A stretch of DNA of 7,442 nt, taken from the NCBI GenBank assembly GCA_046727435.1, contig JBKPCR010000488.1, positions 1 through 7,442 on the forward strand, in the 5' to 3' direction. The notes under the pieces are model-generated. The model was not told the DNA's origin. It was given only the letters and a program-made list of their open reading frames with translations, and searched no databases. The position numbers and the translations under genes were made by a program. Origin of the DNA: CAVPRW01 sp046727435 [NCBI: bacterium] (GTDB taxonomy: Bacteria; Tectomicrobia; Entotheonellia; J063). This document shows, piece by piece, positions 912 to 7,442 of this stretch; the stretch's first letter is position 1, and the number at the start of each line of letters is the position of its first letter.

Positions 912-3350
912 ATGGAACGCTACGTGTGCATTCATGGCCACTTCTACCAGCCCCCTCGGGAGAATCCTTGGCTGGAGGCCATCCAACTGCAGGATTCGGC
1001 CTATCCCTATCACGACTGGAACGAGCGGATCGCCGCCGAATGCTACGCGCCCAACGCCGCCTCCAGGATATTGGACGGCGAGGGTCGCATCGTCAAGATC
1101 ATCAACAACTATGCCAGGATCAGCTTCGACGTGGGCCCGACGCTGCTCTCCTGGCTTGAACACACCACACCGGAGACCTATCGGGCCATCCTTGCGGCGG
1201 ACCGCGAGAGCCAGAAGATCTTTTCGGGACACGGCTCGGCGTTGGCTCAAGCGTACAACCATATGATCCTGCCCTTAGCGAATCGGAGCGACCAGTATAC
1301 GCAGGTGCTGTGGGGGATTCGGGATTTCGAGCAGCGCTTCGGCCGAACGCCGGAGGGAATGTGGCTCCCCGAAACCGCGGTGAATCTGGAGACCCTTGAC
1401 ATCCTGGCAGAGCTCGGGATCCGCTTCACCATTCTCGCCCCCCATCAGGCCAGCCGGGTGCGGATCATCGGCGACCCCACCTGGAACGACGTCAGCGGAG
1501 GACGGATCGACTCCACCAGACCCTACCTGCTGCGCCTCCCCTCGGGACGGCGGATCACCCTCTTCTTCTATGACGGCCCCATCGCCCGGGCGGTGGCCTT
1601 CGAAGGCCTGCTCACGACGGGAGAACACTTCGCCGACCGGCTCGTAAGCGCCCTCTCGACAGAGCGCACGTGGCCTCAGCTCGTCCATATCGCCACTGAC
1701 GGCGAGACCTACGGCCACCACCACCGGCATGGCGACATGGCCTTGGCGTATGCCCTCGATTACATCGACACCAATTATCTCGCGCGCCTCACGAACTATG
1801 GGGAATATCTCGAAAAGCACCGCCCTACGCACCTCGTCGAGATCATCGAGAATACTTCCTGGAGCTGTACCCACGGGATCGAGCGGTGGCGGAGTGACTG
1901 TGGATGCCATTCGGGCGGGCACCCGGCGTGGCATCAGACCTGGCGGACCCCACTCCGGGAGGCTTTTGATTGGCTCAGAGACACCCTGGCCCCCCACTAC
2001 GAGTCGCGCCTGGGCCAGCTCCTGAGGGATCCCTGGGAGGCTCGGAACGACTACATCAACGTCATCCTCAATCGCTCGTGGGAAAGCGTGGAGCGGTTCT
2101 TGGCCCAGCATGCCGTCCGCAAACTCCCCGAGGCTGACACGATCACGGTCCTCAAGCTCTTAGAGTTGCAGCGCCATCTGATGCTCATGTACACCAGCTG
2201 TGGCTGGTTCTTCGATGAGCTATCAGGGATTGAAACGGTGCAGGACATCCAATATGCCGGGCGCGCCGTGGAATTGGCGGAGGCGCTCTTCTGCGAGCCC
2301 ATCGAGGCGTCCTGGCTCGAACGGCTGATGCAGGCGCAGAGCAACATTGCTGAATACCGTGACGGTGCCCACATCTACCAGACGTTCGTGAAGCCGGCCA
2401 TGGTCGATTGGGAGAGGGTCGGCGCCCATTACGCCGTGAGCTCCTTGTTCGAGGAGTATCCCGAGCGGACACGCATTTATGGCTATACGTTCGACCGCGA
2501 GGACGACCAGCGCGTTGAAGCGGGGAAGGCGAAGCTCATTGTCGGCCGGGCGCTCGCCACCTCCGACATGACCCGCGAGGCGGCCAGGTTGAGCTTTGGC
2601 GTCCTCCACATCGGTGACCATCACATCAACGGAGGGGTCCAACTGTTCCGGGGAGAGGAGGGCTATCGGGTTCTGGTGCAGGAACTCACTGAGGCCTTCA
2701 CCAAAGCGGATTTCTCCGAGGCGATTCGACTGCTGGACAGGCATTTCGGGGAGTCGACATATTCCCTCAAATCCCTCTTCCGCGACGAGCAGCGGAAGGT
2801 ATTACATCGCATGCTGGAATCGAGTCTGGCGGAGGCGGAAACCGTCTATCGGCAGCTCTATGAGCAACAGGTCCCCCTGATGCGCTTGCTGACCGATCTT
2901 GCCATGCCCCTCCCCAAGGCGTTTAGTATGGCCGCCGACTTCTTCCTCAACACCAATCTCCGGAGGGCCCTGGAGCAGGAGGAGCTTGACCTGAACCGCA
3001 TTATGACCCTTCTGGATGAGGCCGCCAGAGGGAAGATCACACTCGACACGGCCGATCTGGGGTATGCCCTCGAGCAGACCCTCCAGCACATCATCGGGCG
3101 GCTGGCTGTCAATCCGAGCGAGCTCACGGTCCTCAAGCAATTACAGGCGGCCGCTGCGCTCGCGCATACACTCCCCTTCGAAGTGGACCTGTGGAGAGCG
3201 CAGAATGTCTATTATGAACTGCTCAGAGGGGTCTATCCCGAGTTCCTGGACAAGGCCGACCAGGGGGATGAAGAGGCGCACGCCTGGGTGGAGCGCTTCG
3301 TCCCTCTCGGGGAAGCGCTCCGGGTTCGAATCCCATCGGTGGGCGCCTAA
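912..3350 (+). CDS. Glycoside hydrolase family 57 protein with DUF3536 C-terminal region
   Basis: This 812-residue protein belongs to GH57, the family of alpha-glucan-active enzymes (alpha-amylases, 4-alpha-glucanotransferases, branching enzymes) that act by a retaining mechanism. The N-terminal half is the catalytic barrel. HGHFYQP at residues 8-14 is the first family motif. GMWLPETAVN carries the likely nucleophile E154, and HIATDGETYGHH carries the likely acid/base D263. A Cys-rich segment follows (SCTHG at 318-322, DCGC at 329-332, then GGHPAW). The rest, from roughly residue 450, matches the helical DUF3536 region that commonly follows GH57 domains and has no known function. No signal peptide is seen, so it should be cytoplasmic, most likely in glycogen or malto-oligosaccharide turnover; the exact reaction is not predictable. 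The start at 912 is chosen because GGAGG lies at 901-905 with 6 nt spacing and because MERYVCIHGHFYQPPREN is the usual N-terminus of this group; upstream in-frame codons do not look like protein. No other glucan gene is adjacent. Confidence 0.93.
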   Translation: MERYVCIHGHFYQPPRENPWLEAIQLQDSAYPYHDWNERIAAECYAPNAASRILDGEGRIVKIINNYARISFDVGPTLLSWLEHTTPETYRAILAADRESQKIFSGHGSALAQAYNHMILPLANRSDQYTQVLWGIRDFEQRFGRTPEGMWLPETAVNLETLDILAELGIRFTILAPHQASRVRIIGDPTWNDVSGGRIDSTRPYLLRLPSGRRITLFFYDGPIARAVAFEGLLTTGEHFADRLVSALSTERTWPQLVHIATDGETYGHHHRHGDMALAYALDYIDTNYLARLTNYGEYLEKHRPTHLVEIIENTSWSCTHGIERWRSDCGCHSGGHPAWHQTWRTPLREAFDWLRDTLAPHYESRLGQLLRDPWEARNDYINVILNRSWESVERFLAQHAVRKLPEADTITVLKLLELQRHLMLMYTSCGWFFDELSGIETVQDIQYAGRAVELAEALFCEPIEASWLERLMQAQSNIAEYRDGAHIYQTFVKPAMVDWERVGAHYAVSSLFEEYPERTRIYGYTFDREDDQRVEAGKAKLIVGRALATSDMTREAARLSFGVLHIGDHHINGGVQLFRGEEGYRVLVQELTEAFTKADFSEAIRLLDRHFGESTYSLKSLFRDEQRKVLHRMLESSLAEAETVYRQLYEQQVPLMRLLTDLAMPLPKAFSMAADFFLNTNLRRALEQEELDLNRIMTLLDEAARGKITLDTADLGYALEQTLQHIIGRLAVNPSELTVLKQLQAAAALAHTLPFEVDLWRAQNVYYELLRGVYPEFLDKADQGDEEAHAWVERFVPLGEALRVRIPSVGA

Positions 3351-3353
3351 ATC

Positions 3354-3373
3354 ATGGCATGGACGCATGCCGT
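3354..3373 (+). terminator. Hairpin directly after the GH57 stop codon
   Basis: ATGGCATG at 3354-3361 pairs with CATGCCGT at 3366-3373 (one G-T wobble) around the loop GACG, three bases after the TAA of the glycosidase. The position suits a 3'-end stem or terminator, but no T run follows, so intrinsic termination is uncertain. Confidence 0.35.
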
Positions 3374-3380
3374 CATGCCG

Positions 3381-4511
3381 GTTCTGTCAGATCTCAGACC
3401 TCCTCCGAGTGGCTCATGTGTATAGGCCAACGCGACTTGTCATCCAACCACCCCTCTCCCCGGACGCACTGGAGGAGCGGTATCGTGCGGCCAACGATCC
3501 CGTGGCGCGTCGCCACTGGCCAATCGTGTGGCGGCTTGGCCAAGGACTGCCCTCCGAACAGGTGGCGGCCGTCACTGGCGACACGGCCAACGGGGTGCAC
3601 ACCATCGCCCAGCATCACGATGAAGACGGCCCCACAGGTGTCGGCGATCGGCATCATCGCTACCCCGGTAGCCCTGGATTCCTCTCAGGCGCGCCGTATA
3701 CGGCCTTGGCAGGCGTGCTCGACCAGCCGCCACCCGATAGGGGGCGTTGGACGGGGTCGAAGGTCGCCGCCTGGATGGCCACCGTGCTCGGCCCCCCGTG
3801 CACCCGCAGCGGGGCGGGGACGTCCTCCGACAACTCGGCTTGCGCCCCAAATGCCACGGCTACGGCACGCCAAGGCAGCCCCGGCCGCCCAAGCGGCCGT
3901 TCAAAAAAGCTTCCCAGCCTCGTGCAGCGCAAACGGGATACCCACCCCCGCGATGTGATTGAGTTGTGGACGGTCGACCAACACCGTTTCGGCCTCACAC
4001 CGATCCTGCGGCGCGTGTGGTGCCGCCGGGGCAGCGCCCCCCGCCGTGGTCCAGCATCGGTATCCATGGTCTTCTCTGTACGCCGTTGTCCATCCCCCGT
4101 CGGGCCGGACATGTTGGCTGCTGCTGCCCACCGTTGCCATGATGGCCTTCACTGTGGCACTCGCCGCATGTGTCCACGCCGTAGGAACGGGACGCAGCAA
4201 GCCGATCCTTCCGGGGCTCGATGGTGCGGGTTGGCATGTGAGCCCGCAGCTACAGGTGCTAGAGGGGGTGCATCGCCATTGTTTGCCGCCGTATTTGCCG
4301 GGGCTGCAGCAGGCGGAGCGCTCGTGGCCATTGACTCAAGAAGCACTCGCCAATCGCCATTGCCAGGACGTCGAGGCCCTGCAAACCGCGCAAGCCCACC
4401 GCTGTCTCAGCTTGCAATGCCGGAGGTGATCCGTGCCCACACCAACGTTCATTGGTGGCCACAAACCGCCTAAACCTGTGTCGATCATCCGGATTTGATA
4501 TGAGACGGGAC
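3381..4511 (+). mobile_element. Degraded IS630-family insertion sequence
   Basis: The element is recognised by its transposase remnant (3418-4473). Candidate outer ends are 3381-3400 on the left and the reverse complement of 4492-4511 on the right. Aligned without gaps these agree at 14 of 20 positions by my hand count (shared start GT-C-GTC, then AT-TCA). That would give an element of 1131 bp, close to the usual 1.1-1.2 kb of IS630 elements. The ends are weak evidence: the repeats are imperfect and I see no flanking TA duplication, the expected IS630 target. That an IS630-type element is here is well supported; its exact limits are not. Confidence 0.6.
3418..4473 (+). pseudogene. IS630-family transposase, multiply frameshifted
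   Basis: Pieces of one IS630-type DDE transposase lie in the right order but in changing frames. 3418 to ~3790 carries LSPDALEERYRAANDPVARR and WTGSKVAAWMATVLG (N-terminal helix-turn-helix part). ~3790-3840 shifts to VLRQLGLRP. ~3840-3920 shifts to PQMPRLRHAKAAPAAQAA. ~3920-4040 shifts to VIELWTVDQHRFGLTPILRR. ~4040-4420 shifts to QHRYPWSSLYAVVHPPSGR, WLLLPTV and LDGAGWHVSP. The last frame gives HWWPQTA and the TAA at 4471-4473. At least five frame changes are needed. The catalytic triad codons can still be placed at 3976-3978 (Asp), 4220-4222 (Asp) and 4316-4318 (Glu). Neighbouring positions have drifted: DQ replaces the common DE, and LPGLQQAERSW replaces SPELQPAERLW. The likely start is the GTG at 3418, giving VYRPTRLVIQPP. 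No functional protein can be made without correction of the frame; this is a decayed copy. Confidence 0.85.
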
Positions 4512-5042
4512 ATCGGGCCCCAACTGGCCGGATCAGAAGACTGATACAAGCAGCCGCGGGAGAGCTGGATCAGAGGCCCACGTCTTCCCATACGTTCGCG
4601 GTCGTGGTGCTCATCGGTCCAGCTCCATCAGCTCACGTCAGCACGGCCTGAGGCGTCGTCGAGCATCGTGAGTGGGTTGTGCGGCACCCGTATCGGCGCC
4701 ATGGGTTCGGGATCTTTTTCGTTGACACGGCACCTTCCCCAGACTACATTCGGGCTCCCACACGTGCCTGCGCGCGCTGGACCTTCGTTGCGTCCCACGA
4801 TTGTCACAGAGGAGGGGCGCCATGCCCAAGCCATCCACCAGTCGAATCCCCGCGTGACCATTCGGCCTTGCTCGCCCTCCCGGCCCGCTCCCGGTCGCTG
4901 GTACGGCCGAACGACTGAGCCGCTGGGCTGTCGCTCGCCACGTGTCGAACCGCTCCTGGTCACTGTCTCACGCACTCACGGGCCTTCCCAGCATGAGGAC
5001 GAGTGGCCGGCGTGTCCTTATCCAGCCACCAAGGAGGATCTG
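4512..5042. other. 531-bp region without a recognisable gene
   Basis: Frames are open on both strands (for example the frame of the downstream selenoprotein back to 4668, and a minus-strand frame at 4628-4975), but none resembles a family I know. The frame upstream of 5043 is rich in R, P, S and T and does not look like protein. An 8-bp inverted repeat, GAGCTGGA at 4562-4569 and TCCAGCTC at 4618-4625, has a 48-nt spacer and may be chance. The last bases hold the ribosome binding site of the selenoprotein gene. Debris of older insertions is possible, but I cannot identify any. Confidence 0.45.
5031..5037 (+). promoter_or_regulatory. Strong ribosome binding site that fixes the selenoprotein start
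   Basis: AAGGAGG lies five bases before the ATG at 5043. It decides the start: the in-frame ATG at 4668 and other upstream codons lack such a site and lead into non-protein-like sequence. Confidence 0.8.
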
Positions 5043-5765
5043 ATGACCACGAGACCATCGCCGATTCCGGGCGGCTCGCTCAATGCCGCGCTCGACGCGT
5101 TCAAAGCCGCCTGTGCGCGGCAGTGGCCTCCAGACGCCTTCGCCCTCGTGAACCAGACGCTCGCAGACCTCGCCCAGACCGGTGTTCAGGAGATGGCTCT
5201 GAAGGCCGGCGACGCCGCCCCCCGCTTTACCCTGCCGGATCAGGAAGGTCGACTCGTCGATTCACAGGAGCTCCTGGCCAAGGGGCCGTTAGTGCTGGTC
5301 TTCTACCGCGGCATGTGGTGACCCTACTGTCACACGGAGCAGGCTGCTCTGCAAAACTCTGTAGCAGAGATGGAGGCGCTCGGGGCGTCCGTGGTCGCTG
5401 TGACTCCCGAGGTCCGTGGCGGGATCCGCACGCTGCCTCCAGGGCATCCCTTTGACGCCGTCTTTGATCAGGCTGGCTTGACAGCGCGTTCGTTTGCCGT
5501 CCTGATCGATCGAGGCAACACCGTCGCCCGACAATACCGACTCGTGCACGGCTTTCCCCCGGAATTGCGGGCGCTGTACCGGCAGTTCGGCATCGACCTC
5601 GCGGCGCACAACGAGGACGACTCCTGGACCCTGCCGCTGCCCGCGACCTTTGTGATTGATCAGCACGGCATCATCCGGAGCGCCGATGTCCACGTGGACT
5701 ATCGCAACCGCGCGGAGCCGGCCCAGACTATCGCAGTCCTGCAACAGCTGCGCGCCAGGCGCTAG
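5043..5765 (+). CDS. Peroxiredoxin-like (AhpC/TSA, PRX_like2-type) selenoprotein; in-frame TGA = Sec93
   Basis: Read through one TGA at 5319-5321, this gives a 240-residue thioredoxin-fold protein of the AhpC/TSA peroxiredoxin-like group, thought to reduce peroxides or act as thiol oxidoreductases in the cytoplasm. Residues 1-50 form the helical leader usual in the group. LKAGDAAPRFTLPDQEG begins the fold, followed by VLVFYRGMW-U-PYCHTEQAAL. Relatives carry FYRG-x-WCPYC there, so the TGA replaces exactly the first redox Cys, giving a U93-x-x-C96 motif. After the TGA the frame continues without damage: LGASVVAVTPE, the GNTVARQY stretch, FGIDLAAHNEDDSWTLPLPATFVID, and the TAG at 5763-5765. The base after the UGA is C, a weak termination context also present in E. 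coli fdhF, and a SECIS-like hairpin follows (5335-5351). The alternative is a pseudogene or read error from TGC/TGT to TGA. Against this are the exact position, the hairpin and the intact remainder. No sel genes are in the window. No signal peptide is seen. Upstream lies unassigned DNA, downstream 158 bp to an unrelated SDR, so it appears monocistronic. Confidence 0.85.
5319..5321 (+). other. Selenocysteine codon (TGA read as Sec)
   Basis: This TGA stands between TGG (Trp92) and CCC-TAC-TGT (Pro-Tyr-Cys96), at the place of the resolving or peroxidatic Cys of the FYRGxWCPYC motif. It is the only in-frame stop between the start at 5043 and the TAG at 5763. Confidence 0.82.
5335..5351 (+). promoter_or_regulatory. 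Bacterial SECIS-like stem-loop
   Basis: CGGAGCA (5335-5341) pairs with TGCTCTG (5345-5351; one G-T wobble) around the three-base loop GGC, giving a 7-bp stem. Twenty bases separate the UGA from the loop. The described bacterial SECIS pattern is a short stem, a small apical loop with a G in its first two bases, and about 16-37 nt between UGA and loop; this hairpin meets all three. The tip GCAGGCTGC is close to the GCAGGTCTGC tip of the E. coli fdhF SECIS bound by SelB. The element lies within the coding sequence, as is normal in bacteria. A second, overlapping hairpin is possible (CTCTGC at 5347-5352 with GCAGAG at 5364-5369, 11-nt loop), but its loop starts AA and fits the consensus less well. 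Confidence 0.72.
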
Positions 5766-5923: not shown

Positions 5924-6607
5924 ATGGGCCAATTGCACAATCGAGTGGCGCTCATCACCGGAGCCGGGCGTGGGATTGGACGGGCGATCGCCCTGGCCTA
6001 CGCTCAGGAGGGGGCCAGCCTGGCCCTGGCAGGCCGCACCCGCCGCGACCTGGAGCAGACAGCCCAGGAGGCCCAGGTTCTGGGGGCCACGACCTGCATC
6101 GTGCCCGTAGATATCTCCGACCCGGCCCAGGTGGAGGACCTGGTGCGCCAGACAGTAGCGCGCTTTGGGACCATCGACATTCTGGTCAATAACGCCGGGA
6201 TGACTGGGCCCGTGGGTCCCCTGCAGGAGACCGACGTGGCGGCGTGGATACGCACTGTCCAGGTGAACCTCATCGGGACGTATCTGTACTGCCGGACAGT
6301 GTTACCAGTCATGTACAGTCAAAACCGTGGCAAAATCATCAATCTGTCCGGCGCCGGGGCGACGAATGCGTGGCGCCATTTATCGGCCTATGGCACGAGC
6401 AAGGTCGCGGTGGTGCGGCTGACGGAAACCTTGGCGCTGGAGCTGGAAGGGGCCAACATTCAGGTCAATGCCCTGGGACCCGGCTCGATTCATACGCAGC
6501 TGTGGGAGGACCTCCGCGACAAGGCGCACGCGGCCGGCGATGCGCAGCTCGAAGGTGTTTCAGAGCTGTGGACCTGCTATCCTGGATGGGTGTCTGAGAG
6601 GAAGTAG
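5924..6607 (+). CDS. Short-chain dehydrogenase/reductase (SDR), C-terminally truncated or diverged
   Basis: This 227-residue classical SDR should catalyse NAD(P)(H)-dependent oxidation or reduction of an alcohol/ketone substrate that cannot be predicted. The Rossmann cofactor motif TGAGRGIG is at residues 12-19, VDISD follows at the adenine-binding position, NNAG is at 89-92, and the catalytic residues are S142, Y156 and K160 (YGTSK). LGPGSIHT at 184-191 is the conserved PG segment after the active site. ATG 5924 is preceded by a purine-rich ribosome binding site (AGGGAGGGGG at 5907-5916, 7 nt spacing). After DKAHAAGDAQLEG, around residue 215, the protein stops resembling the family and ends within about 12 residues. 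Only 40 residues follow the PG motif, where about 60 or more are usual. The region that normally closes the substrate pocket and forms the last strand is missing, so activity is doubtful. The gene converges with the MmgE/PrpD gene across a 42-bp gap. Confidence 0.9.
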   Translation: MGQLHNRVALITGAGRGIGRAIALAYAQEGASLALAGRTRRDLEQTAQEAQVLGATTCIVPVDISDPAQVEDLVRQTVARFGTIDILVNNAGMTGPVGPLQETDVAAWIRTVQVNLIGTYLYCRTVLPVMYSQNRGKIINLSGAGATNAWRHLSAYGTSKVAVVRLTETLALELEGANIQVNALGPGSIHTQLWEDLRDKAHAAGDAQLEGVSELWTCYPGWVSERK

Positions 6608-6649: not shown

Positions 6650-7442
6650 CTAGACGACCAGGTTGTCGAACAGTTCCTTCAGGTTGGGCTGGGCCTCCAG
6701 AGACCAGAGCAGTTCCAGCGCCCGGTCGCATTGTTGCGCAGTCAGTAATTCCGCGCAGCAGCTCCGGAACTTGGCCTCGACGTCAGCGTCGCTCATGGGG
6801 TTTTGCGGGAACCCCTTCGGATAGACGCATTGGGCGACGTGTGTTCTCCCAGACCCGGTCGTGACTTCTAGTCGGCAGTTCATCTCGTCAGGGTAACGAC
6901 GGGAGAATTCCGGGTTCGGATCGATGGTCATTTTGCTGATCAGGGCACGTAACGCCGGGTCGTGAATCCGTTGCGGGTTAAAACTGGCAGGAGTCACGAC
7001 TCCATCATGCAGTGCCACTGCCACCAGGTAGGGGATACTATGGTCTGCGGTTTCCCGGGTCTGGGGGTTCCATTTCTCCGGCTCATGGACCGCCCTGAGG
7101 AAGAGCCCGTCAGGGAGTTCCAGATGGATGGCCGCTATGTCTTCTGGAGACACCTGGGAGTGCAACTCCACCGCAAGACCAGTGGGCCCCTGGGTGCCTC
7201 CCTGGGACGGAAAAAACTTGAACCTGGTAGCGTTGATACTATAGGGTTCGTCCCAGCCCTCCTCCTCCCACTGGACGGGATGGCCCAACATTTTGGCCCA
7301 TAGCCCTTCTGAGCCATCAAAGGGCTCAAAGGGGCCAGTGACGCCACACTCGGCCAGTTGGGCGGCAAAGATACCGGCTTTGGTCCCATGAGGACCGGCC
7401 ATGCCCTTCCACATGGATAATTCGCCCACCCGGGTCTGGCCC
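6650..7442 (-). CDS. MmgE/PrpD family protein, C-terminal part (cut by window edge)
   Basis: The visible 263 residues end at a TAG (6652-6650) and stay open through the right edge. They match the C-terminal half of MmgE/PrpD proteins, which are usually about 450-500 residues. The family includes 2-methylcitrate dehydratase, cis-aconitate decarboxylase and related lyases or epimerases of small carboxylic acids. Recognisable stretches are QTRVGELSMWKGMAGPHGTK just inside the edge, IFAAQLAECGVTGPFEPFDG, TADHSIPYLVAVALHDG, and MSDADVEAKFRSCC near the end. The GTG at 7429 is not the start: family sequence continues upstream of it (GQTRV). The exact reaction cannot be told; many paralogues of this kind in environmental bacteria have no assigned substrate. 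The protein should be cytoplasmic. It is convergent with the SDR gene and not in an operon with anything visible here. Confidence 0.88.
   Translation of the reverse strand, partial: GQTRVGELSMWKGMAGPHGTKAGIFAAQLAECGVTGPFEPFDGSEGLWAKMLGHPVQWEEEGWDEPYSINATRFKFFPSQGGTQGPTGLAVELHSQVSPEDIAAIHLELPDGLFLRAVHEPEKWNPQTRETADHSIPYLVAVALHDGVVTPASFNPQRIHDPALRALISKMTIDPNPEFSRRYPDEMNCRLEVTTGSGRTHVAQCVYPKGFPQNPMSDADVEAKFRSCCAELLTAQQCDRALELLWSLEAQPNLKELFDNLVV

What the first reader, a model, noticed from the sequence alone, without database searches (positions are those of the whole stretch)
5043..5765. Peroxiredoxin-like selenoprotein hidden behind an in-frame TGA
Seen: one TGA interrupts an otherwise intact thioredoxin-fold frame exactly where relatives have the first Cys of FYRGxWCPYC, giving U93-x-x-C96; the frame continues through strongly family-like sequence for another 147 residues. 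Established: selenocysteine in bacteria typically replaces the catalytic Cys of redox proteins, and peroxiredoxin-like selenoproteins are known from environmental bacteria. Inference: this gene encodes a selenoenzyme that standard gene calling would split into a short N-terminal ORF and an orphan C-terminal ORF, and the host should have SelA/SelB/SelD and tRNA-Sec.
Basis: partly seen in the sequence, partly recalled or inferred. Interest (0 to 1): 0.9.

Follow-up and report, generated by a model that had tools for sequence, protein, structure and literature searches.

The report
Selenocysteine-containing peroxiredoxin-like bacterial enzyme gene
A bacterial redox enzyme gene carries a stop codon in its active site that is almost certainly read as the rare amino acid selenocysteine, as in many related bacteria; it is a well-supported new example of a known kind of selenium enzyme.

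Summary
TGA at 5319-5321 interrupts an AhpC/TSA-family frame (5043-5765) exactly where relatives have the first Cys of FYRGxWCPYC, and family-like sequence resumes after it.

- TGA stands at the same codon in 10 of the 80 best genome relatives, in 28 of 28 matches in a Rokubacteria genome's phylum and in 10 of 10 in a Syntrophobacteraceae MAG's phylum sample.
- A hairpin fitting the published bacterial SECIS model lies 20 nt after the UGA. It covaries in 35 Sec-form sequences and is absent from 76 Cys-form ones. In the window only 0.39% of synonymous recodings have as many pairs.
- Most relatives' genomes with the TGA form have SelA, SelB, SelD and tRNA-Sec.

Against it: the window's own genome is not held, so its Sec machinery is untested. 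The window copy is a long branch that keeps fewer conserved residues after the TGA than before.

Most likely a UxxC thiol/selenol oxidoreductase; activity is inferred. Prx-like UxxC selenoproteins were known by 2005, so this is a new member.

The parts
5031..5037 (+). Shine-Dalgarno-like AAGGAGG, 5 nt before the ATG
   Evidence: read directly
5043..5765 (+). peroxiredoxin-like selenoprotein gene, 240 aa with TGA read as Sec
   Evidence: read-through translation; PF00578 E 6.3e-23 over residues 56-213; homologues with TGA or Cys at codon 93
5319..5321 (+). in-frame TGA, Sec codon 93 of the UxxC motif
   Evidence: aligned with Cys of Cys-form relatives and with TGA of Sec-form relatives
5328..5330 (+). 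TGT, Cys96, second residue of the UxxC motif; invariant in 77 aligned homologues
5335..5351 (+). SECIS-like hairpin: 7 bp (5335-5341 with 5345-5351), GGC loop 5342-5344, 20 nt between UGA and loop
   Evidence: covariation in 35 Sec-form sequences and absence in 76 Cys-form ones

Best explanation
A selenoprotein gene. Ribosomes read UGA 5319-5321 as selenocysteine, directed by SelB, tRNA-Sec and the hairpin 5335-5351 directly downstream. The product is a 240-residue AhpC/TSA-fold protein (no signal peptide seen by eye) with a U93-x-x-C96 redox motif. Sec93 most likely acts as the nucleophile that attacks a peroxide or a disulfide, then forms a selenenyl-sulfide with Cys96 that a thiol partner re-reduces. 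Shown by computation: the frame, the homology, the TGA/Cys equivalence, conservation of the RNA hairpin, and co-occurrence with the Sec machinery in relatives. Inferred: Sec insertion in this organism, the catalytic role of Sec93, and the substrate.
For: TGA at the same codon in 10 of the 80 best genome contigs relatives, in 28 of 28 matches in 27 of 95 genomes of the phylum of G002, a Rokubacteria genome, and in 10 of 10 matches in 10 of 198 genomes drawn from the phylum of G005, a Syntrophobacteraceae MAG. SECIS-like stem: 93.8% of cells paired, 3 pairs with changes on both sides (12 of 500 shuffles reach that), 0 of 500 shuffles reach the covariation score, slid versions 28-49% paired. In the Cys set 52.8% are paired, inside the 34-55% of its slid versions, and no consensus fold is found. 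Later loci: 12 TGA loci (one, L118, repeats L012's gene) average 6.7 of 8 pairs against 3.7 in 18 Cys or Asp loci. In the window, only 0.39% of 20,000 synonymous recodings have as many pairs at the family's stem position. It meets the published bSECIS limits on loop size, stem length, loop G and spacing (3-9 nt loop, 4-16 bp stem, G in the first two loop positions, 16-37 nt spacing; PMC13188914, passages read). SelB over cut-off in 10 of 11 genomes with the TGA form and in 11 of 37 known here only by a Cys form, Fisher p 0.0004. SelA in 10 of 11; SelD in 10 of 11, all ten with an in-frame TGA of their own. Eleven of 11 pairs of related TGA loci have omega 0.08-0.47 after the TGA.
Against: No genome is held for the window, so its own Sec machinery is unknown. 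The window protein is a long branch (1.12), at most about 50% identical to any relative found, with no supported place in the tree. It keeps 19 of 19 strongly conserved columns before the TGA but 26 of 32 after it, tied lowest of 77 after the TGA (p 0.07); one of the six losses (L100Q) lies in the hairpin. Its best local hairpin energy, -8.9 kcal/mol, is near the Cys-form mean of -8.6, not the Sec-form mean of -13.9, and folding the region is not exceptional against dinucleotide shuffles (z -1.5 to 0.1). tRNA-Sec is no more frequent in genomes with the gene than in the rest of the phylum of G002 (22 of 27 and 57 of 68): that phylum uses Sec generally. G004, a TGA-bearing genome, has SelB but no SelA, no SelD over cut-off and no strong tRNA-Sec. 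A record titled Desulfobacterota (L043) has the Cys form.
Confidence: 0.92

Rival explanations
1. A decaying gene: the TGA is a nonsense mutation, or a former Sec codon no longer read, and the downstream part is not translated.
For: Long branch; 26 of 32 conserved columns kept after the TGA against 19 of 19 before; a broken transposase and a short-looking SDR lie nearby.
Against: No second stop or frameshift in 147 codons; codon-position GC unchanged after the TGA and pN below pS on both sides against seven relatives; the SECIS-like hairpin is still formed and rare among synonymous recodings, 0.39%.
Confidence: 0.05
2. A sequencing or assembly error that turned a Cys codon into TGA.
For: The window is a single record and reads are not available; TGC to TGA is one base.
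Against: The same codon is TGA in dozens of other assemblies, and the window carries the hairpin that Cys-form relatives lack.
Confidence: 0.01
3. UGA is read as another residue: genome-wide reassignment, or Cys inserted by an unusual tRNA that pairs with UGA.
For: Cys is the residue at this column in most relatives; UGA-reading Cys tRNAs are known (recalled, no call).
Against: TGA ends the ABC substrate-binding gene of the same window at the end of its profile, which speaks against global reassignment. The hairpin found with TGA forms and not with Cys forms is what SelB-dependent Sec insertion needs.
Confidence: 0.02

Closest known systems
Prx-like UxxC selenoproteins (Sargasso Sea 2005, PMC1088965; GOS 'Prx-like 1', pfam00578, PMC2398784; 'Prx-like thiol:disulfide oxidoreductase', PF00578, PMC13188914 Table 1)
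   Same: Prx-like protein with one Sec in a thioredoxin-like UxxC motif; pfam00578 in the latter two (papers' passages and table)
   Different: Their sequences were not compared here, so whether the FYRGxWUPYC subfamily is among them is open.
Peroxiredoxin-like family protein (AhpC/TSA family protein), cd02970, UxxS (PMC13188914 Table 1, its reference 60, the Olavius symbiont paper)
   Same: Same name as RefSeq gives to Cys relatives here, 'peroxiredoxin-like family protein'; Sec at the first position of the motif
   Different: Motif there is UxxS, here UxxC. The source paper is not held and the sequence was not compared.
SelL and SelL-related redox proteins (NF040769)
   Same: Weak profile match, 33.5 bits over residues 58-125
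   Different: Far under the curated cut-off of 120; SelL has UxxU (recalled), here UxxC.
Classical peroxiredoxins (AhpE, PrxQ/BCP)
   Same: Same fold: AlphaFold model pLDDT 91.6; M. tuberculosis AhpE Z 18.7, rmsd 1.9 over 149 residues
   Different: Cys96 aligns with the peroxidatic Cys of PrxQ/BCP and Sec93 with the Thr or Ser three places before it. About 50 N-terminal residues, modelled mostly helical, lie outside most matches.

Membership tests
bacterial selenoprotein (Sec by UGA recoding) | in-frame UGA at a position held by Cys in homologues | tested here: met
   of 80 genome contigs relatives, Cys in 70 and TGA in 10
bacterial selenoprotein (Sec by UGA recoding) | other TGA-bearing homologues at the same codon | tested here: met
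   28 of 28 and 10 of 10 matches in two phylum samples; in the phylum of G011, 2 of 20 fetched loci plus one fetched separately
bacterial selenoprotein (Sec by UGA recoding) | SECIS hairpin with loop 16-37 nt after the UGA, G in the first two loop positions | tested here: met
   7 bp stem, GGC loop, 20 nt spacing; covariation; limits from PMC13188914. bSECISearch itself was not run, and its energy limit was not tested.
bacterial selenoprotein (Sec by UGA recoding) | selA, selB, selC, selD in the host genome | not testable with these tools
   no genome held for the window; present in most of the 11 relatives' genomes examined
bacterial selenoprotein (Sec by UGA recoding) | selenium in the purified protein | not testable with these tools
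   needs 75Se labelling or mass spectrometry
AhpC/TSA (PF00578) | score over Pfam's gathering cut-off | tested here: met
   81.5 bits, cut-off 26, with C for U
classical peroxiredoxin | PxxxTxxC-type motif (TxxU in Sec forms) with the peroxidatic residue last | tested here: not met
   Sec93 stands at the Thr/Ser place and Cys96 at the Cys place in alignments to PrxQ/BCP; motif as in PMC13188914
SelL | UxxU motif and NF040769 score over cut-off | tested here: not met
   UxxC; 33.5 bits, cut-off 120
cd02970 PRX_like2 | match to the CDD model | not testable with these tools
   CDD is not among the libraries
Prx-like UxxC selenoprotein (literature) | pfam00578 and UxxC | tested here: met
   direct comparison with the published sequences was not made

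The most novel reading that the evidence does not exclude
The FYRGxWUPYC subfamily is a distinct, mostly Sec-bearing branch of peroxiredoxin-like proteins in two phyla (28 of 28 and 10 of 10 matches sampled, one Cys record known in a Desulfobacterota), with a near-invariant SECIS written partly into synonymous sites. No NCBIfam model reaches its cut-off for the window protein, so such genes are probably split in many annotations. Sec and Cys were exchanged in the family more than once.
Probability: 0.4. Interest if true: 0.4.

Novelty: new member of a known kind. Interest (0 to 1): 0.32.

Why it matters
It is a clean case of a gene that annotation breaks in two: no NCBIfam model reaches its cut-off for the read-through protein. 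The wider set shows Sec in every sampled match of this gene in one phylum while most of the 80 best relatives elsewhere use Cys, and one Acidobacteriota genome holds both forms. That makes the exchange between Cys and Sec, and what Sec gains this enzyme, testable on paired forms.

Tried and rejected
Conserved operon with the SDR gene: three plasmid relatives have an SDR just downstream, but among loci with over 600 bp downstream only 2 of 48 TGA loci (both the same gene) and 10 of 79 Cys loci do. The window's SDR neighbour is probably incidental.

Placing the window's lineage: its DUF3536 protein is 66% identical to two genomes of the phylum of G002 and up to 65% in the phylum of G004; its MmgE/PrpD protein reaches 51% at best in the phylum of G002. 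No lineage is settled.

Viral contigs: no relative, and no match to a TGA-form pattern. Single-sequence folding scores against dinucleotide shuffles were not significant; alignment and synonymous recoding gave the signal. Whether this subfamily is already listed could not be settled: the Olavius paper is not held. The main text of the deep-Sep paper (PMC12013277) has none of six terms searched. Searches for selenoprotein with Methylomirabilota (2 papers) or Rokubacteria (1 paper) showed none on this gene by title (listings only). Table 1 of PMC13188914, seen whole in two parts, has cd02970 once, as UxxS.

Full report
What is in the sequence. The frame 5043-5765 opens with ATG after AAGGAGG, runs 92 codons to TGA 5319-5321, and continues 147 codons to TAG. 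ORF calling gives two pieces, 4668-5321 and 5370-5765. Pfam's AhpC-TSA profile matches residues 56-213 of the read-through protein. The motif reads FYRGMWUPYC.

Relatives. Column 93 is TGA in 10 of 80 and Cys in 70. By record title the ten are three Rokubacteria, a 'Proteobacteria' MAG, two Syntrophobacteraceae MAGs, Desulfoluna limicola, two Rhodospirillales MAGs and a Geobacter MAG. One of the two search patterns contained Cys at that column, so TGA forms are under-counted. In whole genomes, 27 of 95 in the phylum of G002 (L010's Rokubacteria genome; Methylomirabilota by my recollection of GTDB) match at E 1e-20, and all 28 matches have TGA at column 93. In the phylum of G005, 10 of 198 sampled genomes match at 1e-30, all ten with TGA there; yet L043, titled Desulfobacterota, has Cys, so that phylum may not be uniform. 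In the phylum of G011, an Acidobacteriota genome, 29 of 247 match; of 20 loci fetched 15 have Cys, 3 Asp and 2 TGA at column 93, and one further locus of G011, fetched separately, has TGA. G011 holds both forms.

RNA signal. 34 TGA loci plus the window form alignment A2 (35 rows, 34 distinct) and 76 Cys places form A3; three duplicates and all hits under 140 bits, the partial L112 among them, were dropped. RNAalifold finds one hairpin in A2 and none in A3. For the 8-pair stem that I took from a relative's fold (L087), A2 has 93.8% of cells paired, three pairs with double changes (12 of 500 shuffles reach three), and no shuffle of 500 reaching its covariation score; slid versions pair 28-49%. 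A3 has 52.8%, within the 34-55% of its slid versions. Because the stem was derived from A2 sequences, it is expected to exceed slid versions on pairing; the comparison with A3 and later loci matters more. Best local hairpins at the right distance are stronger in A2 (mean -13.9 against -8.6 kcal/mol, p 6e-7), but the window's own is -8.9. G is among the first two loop positions of that best hairpin in 31 of 35 and 33 of 76. Twelve later TGA loci, new except that L118 repeats L012, average 6.7 of 8 pairs; 18 Cys or Asp loci average 3.7. A few TGA loci (L078, L122, L123) fit the stem poorly. In the window the stem is 5335-5341 with 5345-5351, loop GGC, spacing 20 nt; its top pair is A-U where most relatives have U-A or U-G. 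Resampling codons synonymously from this gene's own usage gave as many pairs in 0.39% and as low an energy in 0.7% of 20,000 draws. The published bSECIS limits on loop, stem, G and spacing are met (PMC13188914, passages read).

Machinery. SelB is over cut-off in 9 of the 10 TGA genomes of the first set; the tenth, G010, has two pieces on two contigs, each under cut-off. Counting G011, 10 of 11 genomes with the TGA form and 11 of 37 known here only by a Cys form (not screened for a second copy) have SelB over cut-off (p 0.0004). tRNA-Sec at 55 bits or more, a threshold I chose: 9 of 11 and 11 of 37 (p 0.004); at Rfam's 47 bits it is 9 of 11 and 17 of 37. For these counts I used 48 of the 80 loci. 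SelA: 10 of 11; SelD: 10 of 11, all ten with their own in-frame TGA. G004 has SelB alone. In the phylum of G002, 79 of 95 genomes have tRNA-Sec: 22 of 27 with the gene and 57 of 68 without. The window's own genome is not held.

Selection and history. Eleven pairs of related TGA loci have omega 0.08-0.47 after the TGA and 0.04-0.46 before it. The window against seven relatives has pN below pS on both sides, with synonymous sites near saturation. It keeps 26 of 32 strongly conserved columns after the TGA, tied lowest of 77, and 19 of 19 before, the main point for relaxed constraint; p 0.07. A quick tree of 111 rows with the Sec column masked needs 5 changes of state, at least 2 forced by starred branches; the Geobacter TGA row sits with a Cys row at 98. 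Stars of this quick method are weak where branches are long. The window's place in the tree is unsupported.

Fold and mechanism. AlphaFold gives pLDDT 91.6 and pTM 0.90; the closest solved structures are peroxiredoxins, AhpE at Z 18.7 over 149 residues. Strand 83-87 leads to a loop with residue 93 just before helix 94-112. R89, G90, W92, residue 93, P94, C96, D156, R223 and P226 are nine of the ten invariant columns of 77 sequences (C for U). Cys96 aligns with the peroxidatic Cys of PrxQ/BCP, and Sec93 with the first Cys of ResA's CxxC (catalytic roles recalled). I infer a thiol/selenol oxidoreductase in which Sec93 attacks and Cys96 resolves. Peroxide or disulfide as substrate cannot be told from sequence.

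Novelty. Prx-like proteins with UxxC are in the 2005 and 2008 surveys (PMC1088965, PMC2398784, passages read), and a 2026 inventory lists these and a cd02970 'peroxiredoxin-like family protein' with UxxS (PMC13188914, section 7 parts 1 and 2 of 3 read). The same review reports a Methylomirabilota MAG with 63 predicted selenoprotein genes (passage). The finding is therefore a new member of a known kind, of a subfamily that may or may not be on those lists.

Noticed in passing
window 3359-4429 +: Remains of a transposase, in pieces in different frames; DDE_3 matches one piece at 2.8e-5, under its cut-off. IS630 type is my guess from recall.
   Followed up: no
window 5924-6607 +: SDR gene, 227 aa, that looks short at its C-terminus next to the convergent MmgE/PrpD gene ending at 6650.
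   Followed up: partly
window 912-3350 +: DUF3536/GH57 protein 66% identical to single copies in two genomes of the phylum of G002, each of which has a second copy at 41-42%; in the phylum of G004 identities run from 42 to 65%. Transfer between phyla is possible.
   Followed up: partly
L149 and L128 (genome G011): One Acidobacteriota genome carries both a Sec form and a Cys form of this protein; the Cys form is among the closest relatives of the window protein.
   Followed up: yes
L135, L146, L147: Three homologues from the phylum of G011 have Asp in place of the first Cys of the motif, keeping the second.
   Followed up: no
genome G004 (L009): TGA form present with SelB, but no SelA, no SelD over cut-off and no strong tRNA-Sec; perhaps an incomplete or mixed MAG.
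   Followed up: partly
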